DNA of 39,290 nt from Chitinispirillaceae bacterium (GTDB lineage: Bacteria > Fibrobacterota > Chitinivibrionia > Chitinivibrionales > Chitinispirillaceae), in assembly GCA_016929595.1 (NCBI GenBank), contig JAFGIN010000061.1, forward strand, positions 1-39,290, read 5' to 3'. The stretch's first letter is position 1. The number at the start of each line of letters is the position of its first letter. Made by a program: the position numbers and the translations under genes. Shown here one piece after another: positions 1 to 15,768 of the stretch. The notes beneath the pieces were generated by a model that saw only the letters and a list, made by a program, of their open reading frames with translations, had not been told where the DNA came from and did not search any database.

Positions 1-5
1 CCTCA

Positions 6-1253
6 ATGAACCTAACTGTATCTACAAAATATGTATGCGGTATCGATCTTCATGCAAGAGAAATGAGAATTTGTGTTATGGACAGAGATGGAAAAATACT
101 TCTTAAAAGAAATATCCCCTGTGCTATTAAAGAATTCATTTCTCATGTAAAACCGTTTATGAAATCTTTTACGGTTGGTGTCGAATCTACATTTAACTGG
201 TATTGGCTCCTGGATAAGCTCAAAGAACACAAAATTACCGCAGCTCTTGGCCATGCCCTTTACATTAAACGCATTAAAGGCGGAAAACATAAAAATGATC
301 AGGTAGATGCCCGCGATATAGCTGATCTTCTAAGGACAAACCGGTTCCCTTTAGCCTATGATTATCCATCTGAAATGAGAGCTGTGCGAGACTTCCTTCG
401 CCGCAGACACCTTTTTGTACGAAAAAGAGCTGCCGCATATACTCATTTTCAGAATACTTTCACTCAACATGGTATTCTGGATGCTGTTTATGCTCTTGTA
501 AAAATACAAGGCAAAAGAAGAGCATTACTGGAGCGTGCTGTAAATGATGACATGCGTAAAATTATTGAAACAGACCTGGATTATATTGATTCGCTCGATG
601 CCATTATCAAAGAAGTTGAAAATCTGATTATAAAACGCGCCCGTCATCATAACCGTAAACATTTCGACCTGTTACAGACCATAATTGGTTGTGGTCCTAT
701 TACATCGCTGGTTATTCCTTATAAAACACATACCATTAAACGATTCAGCACCCCGCAACGGTATTCTTCATATAGTCGCGTGATAAGTGCTGACAATGAA
801 TCAAGTGGCCAGTACCTCGTGCATTCACCAACAGATAAGAGCGGTAATCCTTATCTTAAATGGGCATTCTCTGAGATTGCTATTCTTATGCTGAAAGACA
901 GCCCTGAAACCAAAGAATAGTACAACACTGTTTCAGCAATCTGCGAAGGATCGGGAGCCAGAGCTCGCTTACTCCATAAAATCGCTGTTGCAGTATATCA
1001 TATGCTGAAAAAGGGTGTAGCCTTTGACGAATTCAAGTTTATCAATAGTACAAATGATCGGACTGGAAGCTCTGCGCACAACTGGATGGAAACTTCAGGT
1101 GAAAAATCCAAGCCATCGCGCGTGATTGGCAAAAAGTCCGGTCATTCTTCTTTAAAAGATAAAACAAAAAAAGTAAGTGTTAAAAATAAAGTAACTGTAA
1201 AAAAATCATCAGGACGGAAAACCCTGCGCACAACTGGGAAAGTGAAGGCCTGA
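6..1253 (+). pseudogene. IS110-family transposase split by an in-frame TAG
   Basis: The first open part (6-920, 304 residues) has the N-terminal DEDD RuvC-like domain: CGIDLHAREM near residue 12 carries the first Asp, and HKNDQVDARDIADLL near residue 95 carries the conserved D-x-x-D region. It also has the Transposase_20 domain (LLQTIIGCGPITSLVI near 222, then the Ser-containing RVISADNESSGQ segment). The frame stops at TAG 918-920. The same frame then continues without ATG as YNTVSAICEGSGARARLLHK and IAVAVYHMLKKGVAFDEFKF, which is the usual C-terminal end of this family, and runs to TGA at 1251-1253. One point mutation is therefore the simplest explanation. Readthrough or a sequencing error is possible. 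The last 60 residues or so are Lys/Ser-rich and overlap a structured DNA/RNA unit, so they may not be functional protein. Confidence 0.85.
1053..1146 (+). repeat. Stem-bounded unit 1 at the IS110 3' end (possible structured RNA)
   Basis: A 12-bp inverted repeat (1053-1064 with 1135-1146, one G-T pair) encloses about 70 bases. Inside are the shared core CTGCGCACAACTGG (1072-1085) and a hairpin GCCATC-GCGCGT-GATTGGC at about 1112-1130. The unit shares architecture and core with unit 2 (1210-1292). The outer stems have unrelated sequences, and the inner hairpin's closing pair differs by a compensatory change (G-C here, T-A there). That pattern favours selection on folding. It lies inside the readthrough part of the transposase frame. 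IS110 elements use a two-loop bridge RNA, and this could be part of one, but that is inference. Confidence 0.55.
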
Positions 1254-1300
1254 AAACACACAAATCCATCGGCGCTGATTGGATCCGTCCTGTTTTTTTT
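1210..1300 (+). repeat. Stem-bounded unit 2 with T-run at the IS110 3' end
   Basis: A perfect 9-bp inverted repeat (CAGGACGGA 1210-1218, TCCGTCCTG 1284-1292) encloses 65 bases and is followed by eight T (1293-1300). The loop repeats the 14-base core CTGCGCACAACTGG (1224-1237) and the hairpin TCCATC-GGCGCT-GATTGGA of unit 1. The T-run makes it resemble a terminator, although the loop is far longer than usual. The unit straddles the end of the transposase frame. Confidence 0.55.
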
Positions 1301-1871
1301 ACTTTATCGTAATGGGAGTATTTTATAAGATTACTCAAAGAAACAAGGAACATTGCATTTGAATAATTATTGTAAAAGATCATTTATGAATAAAATCAGT
1401 TAGCAAGGACTAACGATATAAATAGATTTTCGACCACCGTCTCTGCGGATAAACTCTTACACAACTGGATATGTAATAATATGTACATAGAACCATCAAC
1501 CATCTTGAATAGCTCCGCAGGGTACCGTACTATTTCTGAGGACAATTATTGTCCAGAGTGTTATTTACAGGGCTGTAGGTTACTTGAGCATTTTACCGTA
1601 AATCAGTCTATGATAGCACTTTAATTCATGATATATGCTTGGACCGGAGGTCGTTTACTTCGGGAACCATTTAAAAGAATATCGAGTCGGCGGAAGAAAC
1701 AGTAGTTACAATGCAATATGCAAAAGTAGTAACTAAATCGAACGAAGAAAAGTCGTTTATGTCAGCAGCTTTATTGCATGGTCGTGACGAGGAAAGTCAA
1801 TTAAAAAACACTTGTAAAAATTTAGCTGCAGGGGATTGTATTTTCTTATTGACTTTCAACCTTCTATATAT
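1301..1871. other. 571-bp stretch without a convincing gene
   Basis: No supportable gene is seen. A possible third, weaker stem-bounded unit lies at 1441-1522: a 9-bp stem with one G-T pair around 64 bases that include CACAACTGGAT at 1460-1470. A perfect 7+1+7 palindrome GGACAATTATTGTCC lies at 1540-1554. A 10-bp inverted repeat GAAAGTCAAT / ATTGACTTTC lies at 1792-1801 and 1848-1857. An open frame at 1711-1947 has no ribosome site and runs into the cassette end. The stretch may be IS-associated or decayed DNA. Confidence 0.5.
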
Positions 1872-1897
1872 GTTGGGCGATGGCTTAGAGTACCCCT
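1872..1897 (+). repeat. Left 26-bp inverted repeat of the cassette
   Basis: Inverted match to 3280-3305 with differences only at two adjacent positions. It supplies the stop codon of the HEPN-like gene (TAA on the minus strand, 1885-1887), so that protein's last residues are encoded inside the repeat. Confidence 0.8.
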
Positions 1898-2553
1898 TCT
1901 CCTATTTTTTCGCGCGCGCCTTGTGCTTTTTCTTTCTTGCAATTTAAAATGATAGCCTTCATCTTAGTTCTAAGAGAACGCCACACTTGTGACTCCCATT
2001 CACAATTTAATAATTCCGTGCGATAATTATCCAGTGACTTTTTTAATGTACTATGAAACTGAAAAGCATAAATTGTAGAGACTCCAATATCTAATGGGTT
2101 TTTTGAATGCTTACAACTTATTTTCCACCCCCCGGAAGTTTCTCCTTGATGAAGGATGGAACACCGAATATCTTTATAAAAGATAGATGGAAAATCGGAA
2201 TGTGCATACATTGCAAAACAAGTGTCTCTTGTAAAAAACTTCAAGAAAGCAGTTTCGCTTTTCCCGTTACTGTTATTCCAACCTCGGTAGAAAGATTCAA
2301 TAGTTTCAATCAACAAACAACAATTTGCCATTATAGCGAAACCACTTACAAAATGACTACGATATTTGCTATCTTGGAAATCAAACATTTTCAAGTACCT
2401 GTTATATAACCTATCATATATAAATTGACTTATTAGATCAACGTTCTTTTGTTTTGCCCAGTTTTCGTATGTGCTTATGTATATGCATTTTGATTTATCA
2501 TAGGAATCATAGAGAAGCATATAGTCATCAGAATTATTTCTTGCAATTGTCAT
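1885..2553 (-). CDS. HEPN-like conserved hypothetical protein
   Basis: 222 residues, mostly helical. The central segment contains FYKDIRCSILHQGETSGGWK with R-x4-H (Arg-Cys-Ser-Ile-Leu-His), the signature spacing of HEPN-fold ribonucleases. The preceding part (FAIMANCCLLIETIESFYRGW) looks like the long core helix of such domains. I recall conserved hypothetical proteins of this kind, with the ILHQ.ET.GGW block and a C-terminal Trp-rich helix ending in KMKAIILNC, but know of no assigned function. The gene starts 27 bp after the secreted-protein gene, so the two are probably co-transcribed. The frame ends inside the left inverted repeat. HEPN proteins often act in RNA-targeting defence or toxin systems. 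That role here is inference, and no partner antitoxin is recognisable. Confidence 0.6.
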   Translation of the reverse strand: MTIARNNSDDYMLLYDSYDKSKCIYISTYENWAKQKNVDLISQFIYDRLYNRYLKMFDFQDSKYRSHFVSGFAIMANCCLLIETIESFYRGWNNSNGKSETAFLKFFTRDTCFAMYAHSDFPSIFYKDIRCSILHQGETSGGWKISCKHSKNPLDIGVSTIYAFQFHSTLKKSLDNYRTELLNCEWESQVWRSLRTKMKAIILNCKKEKAQGAREKIGEGVL

Positions 2554-2580
2554 GCTTAACCTACCGTATTTTATGCCTAC

Positions 2581-3201
2581 TTACTTAATATTTGTGATGA
2601 CGCAGTTATAAATAACATCATTAATAGAGATTCTTGAAATAGAATATTTGCTGCCATAAGGATATGGCCCGAGTATCATTTGAAGAGAAACAATCGAATT
2701 AGACGCGACTAATGATTTGGAAAGCAATTCTTTCCCTGAAAGATCGAAAAGCGCTACTTCAATTTTTGCACCACTTGGTATGTTGAATGATTGTTTCCAA
2801 GCAAGCGCCGAAGGCATAATGTTTTTACTTGGTTTGGATACTGATTTAGTAAGTGTTGAAATCCAATCAGATGTCCTAATGCAATCATAGACATAATCTT
2901 TAATGGCAAGTTTGTATGAATAAGTCGTAGTGTTTGGAATTTGAGTTACTAAAATCGCAGCTTTAGGCATGTAGGAATATGTATAATGATAGGTTGTAAA
3001 CGTAAAACTCATTCCATTTGATAGCTTTACAGTATCACCAAAATCGCTACCATTAAATTCGCCCTGAACACTTGTGCATTCATAAACATAGTAATCAGCC
3101 AAAGTACAAAAATCACTAGCGTCGCCATTAAGAGAAAAACCAGCTTGAGATTGTCCTACCAAGAATACAATAAAAATAAGTAATTTAGTTTTCATAATCA
3201 T
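2581..3201 (-). CDS. Secreted hypothetical protein with FlgD/Por-like C-terminal region
   Basis: 206 residues starting with a signal peptide (MKTKLLIFIVFLVGQSQA, cleavage near residue 20). A second in-frame ATG two codons downstream is an equally plausible start. Three short motifs recur: DYYVYEC (37-42), DYVYDC (102-107) and DVIYNC (195-200), so the three Cys sit in a repeated Tyr-rich context. Residues 140-206 (IPSGAKIEVALFDLSGKELL, then a GPYPYG turn) resemble the FlgD-Ig/type IX sorting-like beta domain found at the C-terminus of secreted proteins in Bacteroidota and Fibrobacterota. It is the first gene of the cassette's two-gene unit. No function is assigned. Confidence 0.6.
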   Translation of the reverse strand: MIMKTKLLIFIVFLVGQSQAGFSLNGDASDFCTLADYYVYECTSVQGEFNGSDFGDTVKLSNGMSFTFTTYHYTYSYMPKAAILVTQIPNTTTYSYKLAIKDYVYDCIRTSDWISTLTKSVSKPSKNIMPSALAWKQSFNIPSGAKIEVALFDLSGKELLSKSLVASNSIVSLQMILGPYPYGSKYSISRISINDVIYNCVITNIK

Positions 3202-6291: not shown

Positions 6292-9200
6292 CTATCGTTT
6301 AACCGATTTCAATTCATCCTGAATCTCTTTGTTATGCGGTTCCAGTTTTCGAGCTTTTTCCAGATAATCCTGATAGACAGCATAATTCTTCTCCTTTTTC
6401 GCTATTCGTGCCAGACCCAGATAGGTAAGGCCATGTTTTGGGTTGGCTTTTAATGCACGATCGTAAAATGTCTGAGCCCACTGAGTTTTTCCCTGTAACA
6501 TGTAAACATTCGCTCTTTCACAGAGTGCAGGAGCATGATTCTGATCGATATAGAGAATTTCTTTATATGTCTCAATTGCATCATCGTACTTTTTCTGTGA
6601 AACTTTAATTTTACCAAACATCATCAGAGCATCAAGATTCTCAGGCTCCTTATTTTTGATCTCCTGCAAAACCGTTGACGCATCATTAAACCGTTTCATT
6701 TCGATAAGGACCTTTGCATATTTAATCATCACTGCAGTGTCCTTCTTTTTGGAAATGATCGTCTTGAGCTCGCCAACAGCTTTTTCATAATTCGCAGATT
6801 CGATATAGAAATCCGCAAGAACCATCCTTAAATCATCATCAACAGACCCTTTAGTACTCTTGACAACTTTCTCCAGCAGATTAGCCCCCTCACGTTTTCG
6901 GTTAGTCATGATATAACCACGGGCAAGAAGTGTCATGATTTTCGGGTCATCTGTTTTAAGCGAATTAGCCATCTCAAGAAACACCATCGCATCATCAATC
7001 ATATTTCTTGACAATAAGACTTCTCCGATTTTTCCGGTCGCTTCAGCATTTTCCGGATCGATCTCGAGGAATTTACGATACGCCCTCAACATATCCTGAT
7101 CTCGGTTCATCTTTCCATAAAGACTTCCAAGCTCAAGCCACACTCTTGCAATCGTATCGGTAATTGCAGCACATTTTTCCAGATATGACACCGCCTTCTG
7201 CGTTTTTGATGCCTGACGGGAATAGTACACGCCAAGCTTGAGCATATTTCGATAATCTTTTGGATAGGCAACAGCATTTTTCTCATACATCTGAACAGCA
7301 AGATTGGCATTGATAGTTTCATAAACTTCCGCCCGCTTGTACGATGCATCAGGATCTTTCACTCCTGGAATTTTAACATAGTCATTGAGAACCTCAGCTG
7401 CTTTTTTCTTATCCCCATTTTTTTCATATGCCTCAGCAAGCGCTTTGAACGCAGCGCCATTTGATGCAACTGCAGCGCTCTTATTGCTCCTGAGTCCTTC
7501 AAGGATATCGATAGCCTGATTTATCTGATTAACCTCAATTGCGCACATTCCATACTTGGAAAGGAACGCCGGGCTCTTATCACTCTTAACCATGCTGAAA
7601 TAGCGAAACGCATCAGAAAATTTTCTGTTGCTATAAAAATGCTCACCAACCATCTTCGCAACAGCTTCATCAGTAGGCGCCTTGTCAACATATTTGCGAT
7701 ACGCAGTCATGGCAGCATCAGTCTTTTTCTGTTTCGTATAGAGGTCACCAAGCATTTTGTACTCTTTTACAGCAGATGGATTCATTGCAAGTGCCTGCTC
7801 ATAGGTAATCGCAGCCTGAGTATACGAACCGTTTTTCACCTGTGCATCTGCCAGAAAGCTGAGGATTTCTCCGTTTTTGGGATCAAGCTTTGCAGCGCTT
7901 TCAAACATGGTAATTGCTTTTGAATAATCTTTCATATTCATGCTTATCTTACCGGATTCAATGTAAATATCTGCATCCGCCTCACCAGCTTTTATGGCGC
8001 CTGTAAGAGCAGCTGATTTTAAAGCTGATGTTGCAGTTTTTGAATTCATCACGAGTTTCACATATCTCTTGTAAAAACCTTTAATTGAAGGTTTAGCTCT
8101 CAGAGCAGCGGAATATGCTTTCAAAGCCCCATCTGAATCGTTCCTGTCAAAGAGAAGATCTCCAAGTTCTTTCTGAGCATCAGCATCCTTAGGCACAAAG
8201 AGAGTGTACTTACGCAGATACGTTAACGCATCCTCCTTCGCTCCACTCTGTTTGGATACTTCATAGAGTTTCTTCATGACATTTGGGTCTTTTGGAACCA
8301 GGGTAGATAATTGTTTATAAATGATTGAAGCCCTGGGCAGGTCATTGGCTTTAAGTGCAGCTTCACCGTACATCTGCAGGAATGAAACTGTTTTACCGGA
8401 TTTTCCTGTAACCTTACTTAAATATTTGACTGCATCCGCATAGTTCTTCGTTTTGAACGCTTTTTCACCTACAACAGCGCTAACCGTTTCATCCATAGGA
8501 TTTTTTTCAAGATATCTTTTGTAAGCTTTCAAAGCGGGGTCAACTTTTTTCTGAGACATATACAGATCGCCAAGACTCTTAAACTCTTTATCTGCTCTTG
8601 GATCCATAGCAACAACCTGCTCATACGTCATGATCGCTTCAGAAACCGATCCCTTTTTAACCTGACAGGCTGCAAGAGAACTAAGCAGCGCAGGATTTTT
8701 AGGGTCGAGCCTCGTCGCTTTTTCAAATGATTCCGTAGCCTTAACGAGATTGCCCTTTTTACTGTATGCTTTGCCAAGCTTTTCATACATTTTTGCATCA
8801 GCTTCACCAGCTGCAGCAGCCCCTTGAAGTGCAACCATTTTTTCTTCTTCGTTGCCATAGCTCATCATCAGCGTTGCATACCTGCTGTGAAATCCTTTAA
8901 GTTTCGGGTCAGCTTTAAGCGCTGCCCGGTAGGCATTCAGAGCGCCCTTCTCATCTTTCTTTTCGTAAAGAAGATCTCCCAGAATCCGCTGCGCCTTTGC
9001 ATCAGCCGGTTTAAGACTGGTATAGGCCTTAAGATAATTAGCAACCTCATCTTTTGTTCCTACACGAGCTGCCAGATCAGAAAGTTTCTCAAAAACCTCA
9101 GCGTCTTTTGCATTAACATTTGACAGCTGTTTAAAAAGCTGGTACGCTTTAAATTCATCACGCGCCATCAATGAAGCTGTCGCATATTTTTTCAGGAAAG

Positions 9201-12200
9201 CTGGATCTGTTGAAGCATTGCCGGTAACCATTGCAAAGTACTTTATTGCTTCAGGGTAATTCTTCTGATCAAAATAGTGCGTACCTACCAGTTGTGCAAC
9301 GGCATTGTCCTGAGCTTTTTCGAGATACTTTTTGTAAACACGAACGGCATTGTCCCGTTTTTTCTGACCGGCATAAAGATCACCAAGTGCTTTAAGCTCT
9401 CTTTCGGCTTTCGGATTCATTGCCGCAGCCTGTTCATAGGTAAGAATCGCTGAAGCTGTATCCTTTTTCGCAACCTGACTTTCTGCAAGGTCTACAAGCA
9501 GTGATGCATTTTTTACATCAAGCTTTGATGCTTTCTCATACATCTGAACTGCTTTAGACGGATTTCCAAGCTTACGATAAATCATCCCACAACGACTATA
9601 CATATCAACCGTCGCCTCACCGGCAGCGATAGCCCCGTTTACAGCATTAATTATTTCAGTGTCTTTTCCTTCTTTGACCACCAGTTCAACATACTTCTTG
9701 TAAAATCCTTTCATTGATGGTGATGCTTTTATTGCTCCCCGATATGCCGCCAGAGCACCAGTATGATCGCCTTTGTCATACAGCATATCAGCAAGGTCTT
9801 TCTGAGCCTCAGCATCATTGGGACGAAGTTTCGTATATGCCCTGAGGAAATTCGACATCTCATCCTTGTTACCGACTTTCCCGGCAAGCTGATAGAGCAT
9901 CTTAAATACATCTGCATCACCCGGTGTAACCGATGCAAGCTTTTTGTAAATCTTATATGCCTTCATCTCGTCACCGGCCATCTTGCTTGCTTCACCGTAT
10001 GCTTTGAGATGGGCGGCGCTGTCAGCTGCCGGTCCCGTCACCATTCCAAGATATTTAACCGCTTCCTTATAATCTTTCCTGTTCAATTCAAATATGCCTA
10101 TTTGAGTAGCAAGTTTACTATCAGCATTCTTCTCCAGATATTTTTTGTAATTCTTTACAGCAACATCCTGCTTCTTCTGTTTCGAATAAAGATCTCCGAG
10201 CATCTTGTATTCCTTACTTGCAGCAGGATTCATCGCGATTGCCTGTTCATAAGTCATGAGAGCTGCGCTGGTATTACCGCTTTTTGCCTGACAGTCAGCA
10301 AGTGCAGTGATCAGTTCGACACTCTTTGGATCAAGCTGACTGGCCTTCTCGTACATCTGAACTGCTTTTGTGTAATTTTTGTTTTTATCATAAATACCAC
10401 CAAGCATCTTATACATTGAAACATCAGCTTCACCGGCAGCAATCGCTCCATTGAGAGCACTCTCAAGAACACTACCTTGTGCTCCGGAAGAGAGCAGAAG
10501 TTCCACATAATTTTTATAAAACCCCTTCGCTGCGGGATCAGTCTTCAGAACTGCGTTGTATGCAGCAAGTGCACCTGAAGCATTCTTCTTTTCGTAAAAC
10601 ATGTCACCCAGTGTCCGCTGCGCTGCAGCATCTGAAGGTTTAAGCGCTGTATATTTTGTCAAATACGCCAGCACATCCTCTTTTGTCCCGACTCTTCCCG
10701 CCAGTTCATACAGTTTTTTGAATACATCAGCATCCTTCGGCGTAAGTGTCGCCAACTTTTTATAGAGCTGGTACGATTTTGAATCATCCTTTGCTGCAAA
10801 GGATGCATCAGCATACAGCTTTACATAAGAAGCCTTGCCCGCAGCAGGCCCATCAACCATCCCCAGATACTTGACTGCATCGGCATACTTTTTCTGATCA
10901 TAATAATAAGACCCTACTTCAACAGCAAGCCGGCTGTCTTTCTTTTTCTCAAGATATTTTGTATAATTTTTTACAGAAGCATCCTGCTTTTTCTGCTTTT
11001 TATAGAGATTACCCAACTCCCTGTATTCATCCACTGACGCGGGGTTCATGGCAACAGCCTGTTCATATGTCAGGATAGCACCACTGACATTGTTGCTTTT
11101 AACCTGTGCATCAGCAAGATTCTTAAGTAAACTCAGATCCTTTGGATCAAGCTGTGAGGCCTTTTCATATGTCTGAACTGCCTTTGCATATTGTTTACTT
11201 TTTTCATAAAAAGCACCCAGTTTTCGATACATGGCCACATCAGCTTCACCGGCAGCTACCGCTGCTGTGAGTACTTCAATAACCTCTTCCTCAATAGTCT
11301 TCTGACCTTTTACGTACTTTTTTGGAGGTTCCTGTGCCATGACCAGTTCAGCATATTTTTTATAAAAACCCTTCGCTGAAGGATTAATTTTTAGAACAGA
11401 TCGGAAAGCTCCAAGCGCTCCTCTGGAATCTTTCTTCTCATACAACATGTCTCCCAAGGTTCGCTGAGCATCTTCATCGCTGGGCCTGAGCTTTGTATAC
11501 TTTCTCAGATACTCCAGAACATCATCCTTTGAACCATTTTTTGTCGCTATCTGATAAAGCGATTTAAAAATATCAGCGTCACCAGGTGTTTTAAGTGCCA
11601 GTTTCCTGTATATGGAATAGGTTTTTGCTTCATCCTTAGCCTGTAAAGCAGCATTCCCGTACTTCTTTAAAAAATCAGCACTCTCCGCCTCTGCACCACT
11701 AACCATGTCGTAATATTTTACAGCTTCACCATATGCTTTAGTTTCGAGCTGGTAATCTCCTACCGTTCTGGCAATTTTACTGTCGGTATTCTTTTCCAGG
11801 TATTTTTTATAATTTTTTACAGCTGATTCTGTCTTTTTCTGCTGCATGTACAAATCACCGAGCAATTTGTATTCTCTGTCGGCAGAGGTATTCATCGCAA
11901 GATACTGCTCGTATGTAAGTATCGCCCCTGAAACATTGCCGCTCTTTGCCTGAGCCTCAGCCAACCCTGAAAGCAGATCGACATTTTTTGGATCGAGCTG
12001 TGATGCTTTCTCAAACATAGTAACAGCCTTTGCACTGTTACCCTTTCTTCTGTAAATATCACCAAGCTTCGAATACATTGCAATATCAGCCTCACCAGCA
12101 TCGATAGCCCCATTCAATACCACAATAAGCTCTTCATCTTTTGCCGTAGACAAAATCATTTTTACAAATGGCTTATAAAACCCTTTGATTTTGGGATCCG

Positions 12201-15200
12201 CTTTGAGAGCTGCACGGTATGCTGCCACAGCACCATCAGTATCCTTCTGGTCATACAGTTTATCACCAAGGATTTTCTGATATGCAGCATCTCCAGGTTT
12301 TAACGATGTATACTTTTTCAATGAAACCAAAGCAACACTATCCGCTCCGGTTCTTTTACTTAGTTCGTAGAGAGTCTTATATATTTCGGCATTCTGCGGT
12401 TGAACATCTGCGAGTTTTTTGTAAATTTTTATTGCAGTCTGGTCTTCCTTTGCCTCATAACAGGCGTTAGCGTAAAGAAGCAAAAAACGTGCAGATCCGG
12501 ATTCCTTCCCTTTTACTTTCCCGAAATACTTTACTGCATCAGTATAGTTTTTTGTATCAAGTGAATATTTTCCAACGACCTCAGCTATCGAGTCATCAGT
12601 ACTTTTTTCCAGATACTTCTTATATGATTTTATGGCGCTTTCAGTTTTTTTCTGTTTCATATAGAGATCACCCAGGGCTTTATATTCAGCATTCGCTGCA
12701 GGATTCATTGCAACTGCCTGCTCATAGGTGATAAGTGCCATTTCATTTGATCCGCTTCCAGACTGAGCCTGAGCAAGTGAAGTAAGTAATTTGTAGTTTT
12801 TCGGATCGAGCTGAGTTGCTTTCTCCAGCGTCTGAATCGCTTTTACATAGTCTTTACTTCTAAGATAAGACGTCCCCATTTCAGCATACATCGAAGCATC
12901 AGCTTCACCGGCAGCAATTGCTCCGGAAAGCGCTTTAACCTTTTCATCAGGGGTACCCTGAGCCGTAACAAGTTCTACATACTTTTTGTAAAAACCTTTG
13001 GCATCAGGTTTTGCTTTCAATACAGCTCTGTACGCTGCAAGCGCTCCGGCACTGTTTTTAAGGTCATAATTTATATCACCCTGCAACTTAAGCATTTCGA
13101 CATCATCAGATTTGAGCGCCGTATACCCGGCAAGATATTCTGCTGCAGCCTTCATATCCTTTTTGCCCTGAGCAATTTCAAAAAGTGTTTTGAAGGGTTC
13201 AGGGGATTTAGGCGATATAACTATAAGCTGTTTATAAATTTCTTCGGCTTTCTGCACATCACCAGTTTTGAACGCAGATTCAGCAAACATAAGCAGGTAA
13301 TCACTCTTTTTAGCAGCTTTACCAGACACCATTCCAAGATATTTTACTGCTTCCTTATACTCTTTCCTGTCATATTCGTAACTGCCAATTGCTAATGCAA
13401 TCTGATCATCTTTATTCTTTTCGATATATTTGCGATAAGCATTCATCCCCTGCTCTTTTTTCCCCTGCTTCAAATAGAGAGCACCAAGAGATTTATACTC
13501 TTTTACCGCAGCCGCATTCATCGCTACAGCCTGCTCAAACGAAAGGATCGCATCAGCATTTCTGCCGGCTTTCTGTTGACAGTAAGCAAGAGAGGAAAGA
13601 AGCTGAAAGCTCTGTGGTTTCTTCTGCAAAGCTTTCTGATACATTTCGATTGCTTTAGGATACTGTGATTTTTTCTGATATATCTCAGCGAGTGTGGTAA
13701 AGATCTCCTCATCCGCTTCTCCGGCGGTAACAGCAGCAGTCAAAACTTCAATGACTTCTTCCTCAGGTGTTTTCTGTCCTTTGGGAAGGGGCTTTTTCGG
13801 CGGTTTCTGCGCCATCACCAGACTTGCATATCTCTTGTAAAAACCTTTTATAGCAGGATCTGCTGCGATAGCCTTACGATATGACTGAAGTGCTTTAGCA
13901 CTGTCTCCCTTTTCAAAGTTAAAATCCCCGAAAGCTGCCTGAGCTTTAGCATCTTTGGGTCTTAAACTCACAAATTTCTTCAGATAGCTGGCAGCCTGCT
14001 CCTTTTTACCGAGTTTTGTTGCTACATTGTATAGATCGTAAATATAATCAGCATTTTTGGGTCTCAGAGACGAAAGGTCCTGAATAATTCCAAAAGCCTC
14101 TTCATCATTACCCTTTTCACGCAGATACTTTACATGCCGTTCTCTTGAAACAACATCCTTTCTATCTGCAGCAATAATCTGTTTGTCTACAGATGCAAGT
14201 TTTTCTTTATCATTTGTTTTCTCGTAACATAATGCTAACCGCTGAAGATACTTTGTGTTTTTGGGATCCCTTTGAACCAGACGTTCAAGGATCTTTGCAG
14301 CTGCCGTATAATTGTTTTCCTGCATGTTTACCTGAGCGAGTACAAGCTGTGGCTTAAGGAGAGAGCTATCATGATGCAATGCGGTTTCAGCGGCATCACG
14401 TGCCAGATCGTACCGTTTTAGTTCCATCGCGGCATTCATCATTCCTTCCGCTGCCGCTGCATTTTTTTCCAGATTGAATCCTTTCTGGAAATACTTAAGT
14501 GCATCCTGCCACTTTTTAGTTTTAAGGCTGTATTCACCAAGAGACATATAGACTTTGGGATTATCCGGTTGTATTGTCAAAAGGCGTTCATAAAGCTTCT
14601 GGGCTTTATCCTTTTCCCCATTTTTCTGATAATAATCAGCCAGACGGGCATGTGCTTCAACATTCTCGGAGTCCTTTGCAATAACCTGCTCCAGAAGAGG
14701 GATCGCTTTTACAATCTCCCCCATCCCTTCATATGCCTCAGCAGCCAGAAATGTTGCATCTGAAACAATTTTTCCAGCAGGATCAGCTTTGAGAATCGCC
14801 ATAAAAATAGCAAGCGCTTCCTGAAAACTCTTTTTCTCGATTTTGTAACGGCCGATCTTTTCTTTTCCCTGTAAAGCTACTTTCGATCCGTTTTTTCCGA
14901 TTACTTTGTCCGCAGCCTCATATGCAGCAATTACCTTCGGGTGATCCTCACCGCTTTTCTCAAGACTGAATGCGTAATTATAAAGATCGGCACCTTTCAT
15001 TTTCCCCTGCTCAACCATTGCATATACCCCGGCGGCATCCTTAAACTGTTCTTTTCCGTAAAGTAAACGCGCAAGTTGGAGCATTATATCTGGATTTTTA
15101 TACTGTTTGTCCTTTGATGCTTCCCTGAAAAAGTAGATCGCAGAATCGGCATTCTGTCGGCTCTGATAAATAGAACCTATTTTGACCGCAGTTTCACCTG

Positions 15201-15768
15201 ATGGCTGTGCTCCCTGAGTAAGTAACAGTAGAGGAAGAGCTTTTGCATAATTCTTCTCTTCAAAGTAAATATTTCCCAGCTCTCTGTTTGCAACAGCATT
15301 CTTTTTGTCGGTTTCAACCAGTTTTTCAAGAGGACCTTTTGCTTCCTTTGTTCTTTTAAGAGCAATCAATGCCCGTGCATATTCCCAGCTCGCTTCACCA
15401 GTCGTTTTTATGGCTGTAGCTTTCTGAGCCATTTCAACCGCCTGCTCAGGCTGATTCATTGAATTGTATACCCGTGCAGCTCCCAGATGCGCTTCATAAT
15501 TTTTGTCATCATTTCTGATAGCCACCATATAACATGCAAGGGCCTTCTCAACCAGCTCGGTCCCTTCATTAGCAACCCCCAACTTTGCCCAGATCGCAGC
15601 ATCACGGCTTCCAATCGGGATCTTCTCGTCAGCATACTTGATCGCATCAGCATACTTTCGACCATTGAACAACTTATCGAATGTTTCATCAGCGGTGATA
15701 AATGAAGAGTGTAAGAGTAGAATTGTACCTGCCCATGAAAGTATACACTTTCCAGAAAAGATACCCAT
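6292..15768 (-). CDS. Giant periplasmic TPR protein, 3,158 residues, eight long modules
   Basis: A signal peptide (MGIFSGKCILSWAGTILLLH, cleavage near ITADE) is followed by TPR helices over the full length. From about residue 600 to 2830 a long module recurs. Its marker GFYK(or GFHS) occurs at residues 642, 925, 1196, 1467, 1749, 2021, 2292 and 2564, so the spacings are 283, 271, 271, 282, 272, 271 and 272. The usual period equals eight 34-residue TPRs. The two longer modules have an extra PPKK...KGQKT stretch of about 11 residues. Each module shows the same order: GAIAAGEAD..MY, EKA(S/T)QLDPKN, ILTYEQAVAMNP, LYxKQKK, KNYKKYLEKN, then a second TPR set. The flanks are ordinary divergent TPRs. 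TPR solenoids act as protein scaffolds, and this one is probably periplasmic or envelope-bound. GGAGG at 15775-15779 sits just upstream of the ATG. No enzymatic domain or anchor is seen. Confidence 0.92.
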   Translation of the reverse strand: MGIFSGKCILSWAGTILLLHSSFITADETFDKLFNGRKYADAIKYADEKIPIGSRDAAIWAKLGVANEGTELVEKALACYMVAIRNDDKNYEAHLGAARVYNSMNQPEQAVEMAQKATAIKTTGEASWEYARALIALKRTKEAKGPLEKLVETDKKNAVANRELGNIYFEEKNYAKALPLLLLTQGAQPSGETAVKIGSIYQSRQNADSAIYFFREASKDKQYKNPDIMLQLARLLYGKEQFKDAAGVYAMVEQGKMKGADLYNYAFSLEKSGEDHPKVIAAYEAADKVIGKNGSKVALQGKEKIGRYKIEKKSFQEALAIFMAILKADPAGKIVSDATFLAAEAYEGMGEIVKAIPLLEQVIAKDSENVEAHARLADYYQKNGEKDKAQKLYERLLTIQPDNPKVYMSLGEYSLKTKKWQDALKYFQKGFNLEKNAAAAEGMMNAAMELKRYDLARDAAETALHHDSSLLKPQLVLAQVNMQENNYTAAAKILERLVQRDPKNTKYLQRLALCYEKTNDKEKLASVDKQIIAADRKDVVSRERHVKYLREKGNDEEAFGIIQDLSSLRPKNADYIYDLYNVATKLGKKEQAASYLKKFVSLRPKDAKAQAAFGDFNFEKGDSAKALQSYRKAIAADPAIKGFYKRYASLVMAQKPPKKPLPKGQKTPEEEVIEVLTAAVTAGEADEEIFTTLAEIYQKKSQYPKAIEMYQKALQKKPQSFQLLSSLAYCQQKAGRNADAILSFEQAVAMNAAAVKEYKSLGALYLKQGKKEQGMNAYRKYIEKNKDDQIALAIGSYEYDRKEYKEAVKYLGMVSGKAAKKSDYLLMFAESAFKTGDVQKAEEIYKQLIVISPKSPEPFKTLFEIAQGKKDMKAAAEYLAGYTALKSDDVEMLKLQGDINYDLKNSAGALAAYRAVLKAKPDAKGFYKKYVELVTAQGTPDEKVKALSGAIAAGEADASMYAEMGTSYLRSKDYVKAIQTLEKATQLDPKNYKLLTSLAQAQSGSGSNEMALITYEQAVAMNPAANAEYKALGDLYMKQKKTESAIKSYKKYLEKSTDDSIAEVVGKYSLDTKNYTDAVKYFGKVKGKESGSARFLLLYANACYEAKEDQTAIKIYKKLADVQPQNAEIYKTLYELSKRTGADSVALVSLKKYTSLKPGDAAYQKILGDKLYDQKDTDGAVAAYRAALKADPKIKGFYKPFVKMILSTAKDEELIVVLNGAIDAGEADIAMYSKLGDIYRRKGNSAKAVTMFEKASQLDPKNVDLLSGLAEAQAKSGNVSGAILTYEQYLAMNTSADREYKLLGDLYMQQKKTESAVKNYKKYLEKNTDSKIARTVGDYQLETKAYGEAVKYYDMVSGAEAESADFLKKYGNAALQAKDEAKTYSIYRKLALKTPGDADIFKSLYQIATKNGSKDDVLEYLRKYTKLRPSDEDAQRTLGDMLYEKKDSRGALGAFRSVLKINPSAKGFYKKYAELVMAQEPPKKYVKGQKTIEEEVIEVLTAAVAAGEADVAMYRKLGAFYEKSKQYAKAVQTYEKASQLDPKDLSLLKNLADAQVKSNNVSGAILTYEQAVAMNPASVDEYRELGNLYKKQKKQDASVKNYTKYLEKKKDSRLAVEVGSYYYDQKKYADAVKYLGMVDGPAAGKASYVKLYADASFAAKDDSKSYQLYKKLATLTPKDADVFKKLYELAGRVGTKEDVLAYLTKYTALKPSDAAAQRTLGDMFYEKKNASGALAAYNAVLKTDPAAKGFYKNYVELLLSSGAQGSVLESALNGAIAAGEADVSMYKMLGGIYDKNKNYTKAVQMYEKASQLDPKSVELITALADCQAKSGNTSAALMTYEQAIAMNPAASKEYKMLGDLYSKQKKQDVAVKNYKKYLEKNADSKLATQIGIFELNRKDYKEAVKYLGMVTGPAADSAAHLKAYGEASKMAGDEMKAYKIYKKLASVTPGDADVFKMLYQLAGKVGNKDEMSNFLRAYTKLRPNDAEAQKDLADMLYDKGDHTGALAAYRGAIKASPSMKGFYKKYVELVVKEGKDTEIINAVNGAIAAGEATVDMYSRCGMIYRKLGNPSKAVQMYEKASKLDVKNASLLVDLAESQVAKKDTASAILTYEQAAAMNPKAERELKALGDLYAGQKKRDNAVRVYKKYLEKAQDNAVAQLVGTHYFDQKNYPEAIKYFAMVTGNASTDPAFLKKYATASLMARDEFKAYQLFKQLSNVNAKDAEVFEKLSDLAARVGTKDEVANYLKAYTSLKPADAKAQRILGDLLYEKKDEKGALNAYRAALKADPKLKGFHSRYATLMMSYGNEEEKMVALQGAAAAGEADAKMYEKLGKAYSKKGNLVKATESFEKATRLDPKNPALLSSLAACQVKKGSVSEAIMTYEQVVAMDPRADKEFKSLGDLYMSQKKVDPALKAYKRYLEKNPMDETVSAVVGEKAFKTKNYADAVKYLSKVTGKSGKTVSFLQMYGEAALKANDLPRASIIYKQLSTLVPKDPNVMKKLYEVSKQSGAKEDALTYLRKYTLFVPKDADAQKELGDLLFDRNDSDGALKAYSAALRAKPSIKGFYKRYVKLVMNSKTATSALKSAALTGAIKAGEADADIYIESGKISMNMKDYSKAITMFESAAKLDPKNGEILSFLADAQVKNGSYTQAAITYEQALAMNPSAVKEYKMLGDLYTKQKKTDAAMTAYRKYVDKAPTDEAVAKMVGEHFYSNRKFSDAFRYFSMVKSDKSPAFLSKYGMCAIEVNQINQAIDILEGLRSNKSAAVASNGAAFKALAEAYEKNGDKKKAAEVLNDYVKIPGVKDPDASYKRAEVYETINANLAVQMYEKNAVAYPKDYRNMLKLGVYYSRQASKTQKAVSYLEKCAAITDTIARVWLELGSLYGKMNRDQDMLRAYRKFLEIDPENAEATGKIGEVLLSRNMIDDAMVFLEMANSLKTDDPKIMTLLARGYIMTNRKREGANLLEKVVKSTKGSVDDDLRMVLADFYIESANYEKAVGELKTIISKKKDTAVMIKYAKVLIEMKRFNDASTVLQEIKNKEPENLDALMMFGKIKVSQKKYDDAIETYKEILYIDQNHAPALCERANVYMLQGKTQWAQTFYDRALKANPKHGLTYLGLARIAKKEKNYAVYQDYLEKARKLEPHNKEIQDELKSVKR

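What the first reader, a model, noticed from the sequence alone, without database searches (positions are those of the whole stretch)
1053..1300. Two stem-bounded units behind an IS110 transposase, with compensatory changes
Both units have an outer stem (12 bp and 9 bp, unrelated sequences), the same 14-base core CTGCGCACAACTGG 8-13 bases inside, and the same 3' hairpin whose closing pair changes from G-C to T-A. Stem pairing is kept while sequence differs, the hallmark of a folded RNA (or single-stranded DNA). IS110 recombinases are guided by a two-loop bridge RNA. A duplicated fold here could be that RNA in an unusual 3' position, or a new IS-linked RNA.
Basis: partly seen in the sequence, partly recalled or inferred. 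Interest (0 to 1): 0.72.

Follow-up and report, generated by a model that had tools for sequence, protein, structure and literature searches.

The report
IS guide RNA with duplicated target loop
The two folded units are real: they belong to the guide RNA that a jumping gene of the IS110/IS1111 kind uses to choose where to insert, and this copy is unusual because its target-reading loop has been duplicated, giving three loops where its relatives have two.

Summary
Units U1 (1053-1146) and U2 (1210-1292) exist and fold better than shuffled sequence. They are not unrelated: they are 74%-identical tandem duplicates, and two stem pairs changed on both sides.

In about 20 related elements the DNA 3' of the transposase carries the same kind of unit, normally two in tandem: outer stem, 8-nt guide, AACTGG-type box, inner hairpin, 8-nt guide, TGAWTGG-type box. 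Stems fit only their own partner arm (permutation p=5e-5). In multi-copy relatives the first unit's guides match both insertion flanks next to a TG core. So this is a bridge RNA/seekRNA in the 3' position normal for the IS1111 group.

By position, box type and downstream motif, U1 is the canonical target unit and U3 the canonical second unit. U2 is an extra target unit. Guides and boxes are kept in both copies (29/31 identical) better than scaffold (41/63; p=0.0025). Only this element, of 36 close relatives scanned, showed three units.

Verdict: a known kind of RNA in a new three-loop variant, seen once, in a copy whose transposase has an in-frame TAG. Whether U2 works is untested.

The parts
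6..920 (+). IS110-family transposase frame, interrupted by in-frame TAG 918-920; homology to relatives goes on in frame to about 1043
   Evidence: PF01548 and PF02371, NF033542, tblastn extents
1053..1146 (+). U1: canonical first (target-binding) unit; stem 1053-1064/1135-1146; guide 1 at 1072-1079; box AACTGG 1080-1085; guide 2 at 1115-1122; box TGATTGG 1123-1129
   Evidence: fold z -3.25; unit scan; position as in relatives (+10 from end of transposase homology)
1210..1292 (+). U2: extra first-type unit, tandem duplicate of U1; stem 1210-1218/1284-1292; guide 1 at 1224-1231; box AACTGG 1232-1237; guide 2 at 1268-1275; box TGATTGG 1276-1282; followed by T8 1293-1300
   Evidence: fold z -2.78; homology to U1; unit scan
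1441..1524 (+).
   Evidence: fold z -2.63; unit scan; TGAATAG box and following motif as in unit 2 of relatives
1520..1539 (+). GGGTACCG..TTTCTGA motif that follows unit 2 in relatives
   Evidence: read against L007, L219, L220, L221
1849..1853 (+). TTGAC, start of the right-end rule TTGAC-N17-TG; probably the -35 of a promoter formed when the ends join
   Evidence: same spacing in L007, L008, L011, L087, L222, L223, L230, L231 and L235; promoter role inferred from PMC11187229
1860..1865 (+). CCTTCT, candidate right subterminal inverted repeat (AGAAGG at the left end on contig C20)
   Evidence: sequence comparison with L195; only 6 bp
1871..1872 (+). TG core, right boundary of the element; right flank TTGGGCGATGGC from 1873
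   Evidence: end rule

Best explanation
The region is the 3' guide-RNA gene (bridge RNA / seekRNA) of an IS110-family element of IS1111-like layout. Inferred from published systems: a transcript reading through the transposase gene folds into stem-bounded units that the transposase binds. Supported here: unit 1 carries two 8-nt guides on either side of an inner hairpin; guide 1 is complementary to the top strand right of a TG core, and guide 2 has the top-strand sequence left of it, so it pairs with the bottom strand. Unit 2 (U3) is the second loop, presumably for the element's own ends; that role is inferred. What is special is that unit 1 exists twice in tandem (U1 and U2). Both copies keep nearly the same guides on diverged scaffolds, so the element could make two target-reading RNAs. 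U1 fits the present insertion site better than U2, through the left guide, so U2 may be a redundant copy or one drifting towards another site.
For: Same units 3' of the transposase in relatives, absent from shuffles and nearly absent from control regions. Stem arms fit own partner 10.7 against 5.7 when swapped, p=5e-5. Unit-1 guides match both flanks in multi-copy relatives: L247 rank 1 of 471 on both sides, L251 ranks 3 and 1; guide 1 of L007, L187, L222 and L223 ranks 1-3. Right-end rule shared with relatives. U1-U2 homology with guides and boxes kept best, p=0.0025. U3 has the box and downstream motif of unit 2.
Against: One element only, with an in-frame TAG in its transposase. No RNA data. 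The left flank comes from another contig with one mismatch in the 50-base overlap. A blind scan of 456 guide-flank registers on the first data set gave two higher z values than the expected one. Guides in the window agree only partly with its flanks (6/8 and 5/8). Unit-2 guides gave no clear match to the element's ends.
Confidence: 0.85

Rival explanations
1. U1 and U2 are the two loops (target and donor) of one bridge RNA, and U3 is a relic or an unrelated hairpin.
For: U2 sits at the distance from the transposase where unit 2 sits in relatives (+186 against +147 to +208).
Against: U2 has the unit-1 box TGATTGG and guides like U1's; U3 has the unit-2 box TGAATAG and is followed by the GGGTACCG..TTTCTGA motif that follows unit 2 elsewhere. 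U2 is homologous to U1 over its whole length, U3 is not.
Confidence: 0.08
2. U2 is a dead duplicate: a tandem copy in a decaying element, kept only by its recent origin.
For: The transposase has an in-frame TAG; U2's left guide agrees with the present flank at only 3 of 8; no close relative has a third unit.
Against: Guides and boxes are 29/31 identical while the rest is 41/63, and U2's stem is intact through double changes. This pattern suggests selection on both copies after the duplication. It stays compatible with the best explanation of what the RNA is.
Confidence: 0.4
3. The repeats are coding: a repeated motif in a C-terminal extension of the transposase.
For: The frame is open from 921 to 1253 and reads as a lysine-rich tail; relatives L223 and L027 have basic tails too.
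Against: The shared 14-mer falls in different frames in the two units (SAHNW in U1, LRTTG in U2), the frame ends inside U2, and most relatives stop before unit 1 yet keep the unit.
Confidence: 0.02

Closest known systems
seekRNA of IS1111-family elements (ISEc11, ISPa11, ISKpn4; PMC11187229)
   Same: Encoded 3' of a DEDD transposase; about 80-95 nt unit with two short guides, 5' guide for the top strand and 3' guide for the bottom strand; attC sites among the targets (ISKpn4)
   Different: Two target units in tandem instead of one; transposase of another, divergent clade
Bridge RNA of IS621 and relatives (PMC11208160, PMC11208158)
   Same: Two-loop RNA with split guides in internal loops, recognising target and donor
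   Different: IS621 RNA is 5' of the gene and its guides are in the opposite order; no duplicated target loop described in the papers read
TIGR stem-loop arrays (PMC12045711)
   Same: Repeated stem-loop units with two 8-12 nt spacers flanked by box C/D-like motifs (compare CCA and TGG here); related Nop-type RNA-binding protein
   Different: Here the protein is an IS110 transposase, the copies share guides rather than carrying different spacers, and there are only two

Membership tests
IS110 family (DEDD, RNA-guided transposase) | N-terminal DEDD domain (PF01548) and C-terminal PF02371 | tested here: met
   (NF033542 above its cut-off although the protein is cut by a TAG)
IS1111 group | Guide RNA in the 3' non-coding region | tested here: met
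   units 3' of the transposase here and in relatives
IS1111 group | Subterminal inverted repeats of 7-17 bp | tested here: inconclusive
   relatives show 6-10 bp exact repeats with the left spacer longer; the window shows only AGAAGG/CCTTCT, left end from contig C20
IS1111 group | GL-P----S(T)G motif in the C-terminal domain | tested here: not met
   window reads SRVISADNESSG: SG is kept, the G and P are not (read by eye); so I call the element IS1111-like, not a member
seekRNA / bridge RNA | Stem-bounded units conserved by pairing across relatives | tested here: met
   p=5e-5
seekRNA / bridge RNA | Guides match both flanks of the insertion site | tested here: met
   in multi-copy relatives L247 and L251; only partial in the window itself, 6/8 and 5/8
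seekRNA / bridge RNA | Second loop matches the element's own ends (donor) | tested here: inconclusive
   no clear register
seekRNA / bridge RNA | RNA is expressed and bound by the transposase | not testable with these tools
   no RNA data
TIGR array | Array of units with different spacers next to a Tas protein | tested here: not met
   two copies with nearly the same guides next to an IS110 transposase

The most novel reading that the evidence does not exclude
A functional guide RNA with two target loops: after tandem duplication both target-binding units are expressed and used, giving one IS110-type transposase two seekRNAs, one for the present site (U1) and one whose left guide has begun to change (U2). 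That would be a natural intermediate by which these elements change target.
Probability: 0.3. Interest if true: 0.68.

Novelty: new variant of a known kind. Interest (0 to 1): 0.43.

Why it matters
Natural re-targeting of these elements is documented (PMC11187229), but how a guide changes without loss of function is open. Duplication of the target unit, with one copy free to drift, is a simple route, and this locus looks like such a state. Tandem target units would also interest those who use bridge RNAs for programmable insertion, and they recall the stem-loop arrays of TIGR systems. The work also gives a compact anatomy for this clade: guide positions, TG core and the TTGAC-N17-TG right end.

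Tried and rejected
Rfam at E<=5 on 1-3000: no match. The 14-mer in viral contigs gave 71 loci with one match each; not pursued, since a 14-mer is expected by chance at that scale. No transposase relative in viral contigs. A perfect 10-nt complement of U1 (AAGCCATCGC) to 1877-1886 first looked like the target match; set aside because half of it is the conserved AARCC box and its order contradicts the rule found in relatives. A 9-of-10 match of U3 to the right end (TCAACCATCT / TCAACCTTCT) set aside as expected about 0.3 times by chance (rough estimate). The MAFFT alignment of units was not structural enough for pair counts, so the swapped-arm permutation was used. The protein-repeat reading was rejected because the shared 14-mer lies in different frames. 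Two guide checks had index slips (L223, L251 guide 1), corrected; for L251 the corrected position was chosen by box homology after the first result was seen.

Full report
What is there. The window begins inside an IS110-family transposase frame (6-920). An in-frame TAG at 918-920 interrupts it, and homology to relatives continues in frame to about 1043. Both outer stems are as described. U1, U2 and a third unit, U3 (1441-1524), each fold better than dinucleotide shuffles (z -3.25, -2.78, -2.63); the linkers do not.

U1 and U2 are duplicates. They align end to end with 70 of 94 U1 positions identical; the alignment score is 87 against 24 +/- 5 for shuffles. They share GGAC/GTCC in the stem. Next to that core, C-G in U1 is A-T in U2 and T-A is G-C, so pairing was kept by double changes. 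Identity is 29/31 in guides and boxes and 41/63 elsewhere (Fisher p=0.0025). U3 is not alignable to either beyond the boxes.

Relatives. Transposase relatives were collected from public genomes, plasmids and whole-genome searches. Downstream of the transposase the close ones show the same anatomy: outer stem, A-R-C-Y, 8-nt guide, R-A-C-T-G-G type box, inner hairpin often closed by TGG/CCA, A-R-C-Y, 8-nt guide, TGAWTGG or TGARTAG box, outer stem. In the scan, close relatives gave 19 with one unit, 7 with two, 9 with none, and the window alone with three; 105 shuffled regions gave none. Many with one or none have the missing unit by eye (for example L219-L222), so the counts are lower bounds. 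Relatives fetched later were read by eye only. Outer arms fit their own partner far better than another element's arm (mean 10.7 against 5.7, p=5e-5).

Ends and target. Comparing copies fixed the ends. Shewanella copies and others read ..TG-ATACTCAT-repeat at the left and repeat-..-TG-TTR at the right. The right end obeys TTGAC-N17-TG-TTR in several relatives and in the window, where TTGAC is 1849-1853 and TG 1871-1872. The right flank with the core G, GTTGGGC, fits the attC consensus GTTRRRY and lies just after the stop codon of the minus-strand ORF 1885-2553. The left end was found on contig C20 (locus L195), overlapping the window's first 50 bases with one mismatch. One left and one right end were found in the genome, so they probably belong to one insertion; this is inferred.

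Guide rule. From the TG core and the published IS1111 order (PMC11187229), guide 1 of unit 1 should be complementary to the top strand right of TG, and guide 2 should equal the top strand left of TG. On the first set the own-flank scores exceed permuted ones (p=0.003 and 0.004). A blind scan of 456 registers gave two registers with higher z, so this alone is modest. Multi-copy elements fetched afterwards, with targets other than attC, were the better test. L247 copies insert at ATCACC-TG-TCCCCA, and unit 1 reads ATCACC and (reverse complement) TCCCCATT: rank 1 of 471 positions on both sides. L251 copies insert at CTTAAC-TG-GTTAATC or GGTAA; guides 2 and 1 rank 3 and 1 of 471, the guide-1 end having been reset by box homology after a first misplacement. 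For guide 1, L007, L187, L222 and L223 rank 1-3, L087 ranks 18 of 481. Hence unit 1 is the target-binding unit. Unit-2 guides gave no clear match to the ends, so its donor role is taken from the literature.

Reading the window by this rule. U1 guide 1 agrees with the right flank at 6 of 8 and guide 2 with the left flank at 5 of 8 (ranks 3 and 10 of 820). U2 has the same guide 1, but its guide 2 agrees at only 3 of 8. U3 does not fit on the left (1 of 8). U3 has the unit-2 box TGAATAG and the following GGGTACCG..TTTCTGA motif of relatives. So U1 and U3 are the standard pair and U2 is an added target unit.

Known or new. Guide RNA 3' of an IS1111-type transposase is known (PMC11208160, PMC11187229), and 70-100 nt carrying the target guides suffices for ISEc11 transposition (PMC11187229), so each of U1 and U2 could in principle serve alone. 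I found no description of a second target loop in the papers read, but the library is partial. TIGR stem-loop arrays (PMC12045711) show that repeated two-spacer units occur with related proteins.

Limits. One element, a stop codon in its transposase, no RNA data, left flank from another contig. Whether U2 is used, redundant or decaying is not decided. Steps shown: anatomy, homology, stem and guide conservation, flank matches in relatives. Steps inferred: transcription, processing, transposase binding, donor role of U3, use of U2.

Noticed in passing
921-1253: After the TAG the transposase frame stays open through U1 into U2 and would encode a lysine-rich tail; relatives L223 and L027 also have basic C-terminal tails.
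   Followed up: partly
L195 about 130-205 (contig C20): A long near-perfect palindrome (GCCCAAGCCAAAGTGTGTTAGTAAAG and its complement) lies just outside the left end of the element; with the right flank it looks like an attC-like or terminator-like target.
   Followed up: partly
1284-1300: The U2 stem is followed by eight T, so U2 could also act as a transcription terminator before U3; the simple terminator scan did not list it because of its long loop.
   Followed up: no
6292-15768: A 3158-aa minus-strand protein made almost wholly of TPR repeats.
   Followed up: no
1885-2553 and 2581-3201: Two minus-strand ORFs of 222 and 206 aa next to the element with no Pfam or NCBIfam match.
   Followed up: no
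own genome, contigs C39, C121, C53, C186: Tyrosine-recombinase loci matching the integron integrase model below its cut-off, best on C39; all 14 control genomes also gave such matches.
   Followed up: no
own genome, C177:14897-15264: A decayed, truncated second copy of the transposase, 72-74% identical; no units seen by eye beside it.
   Followed up: partly
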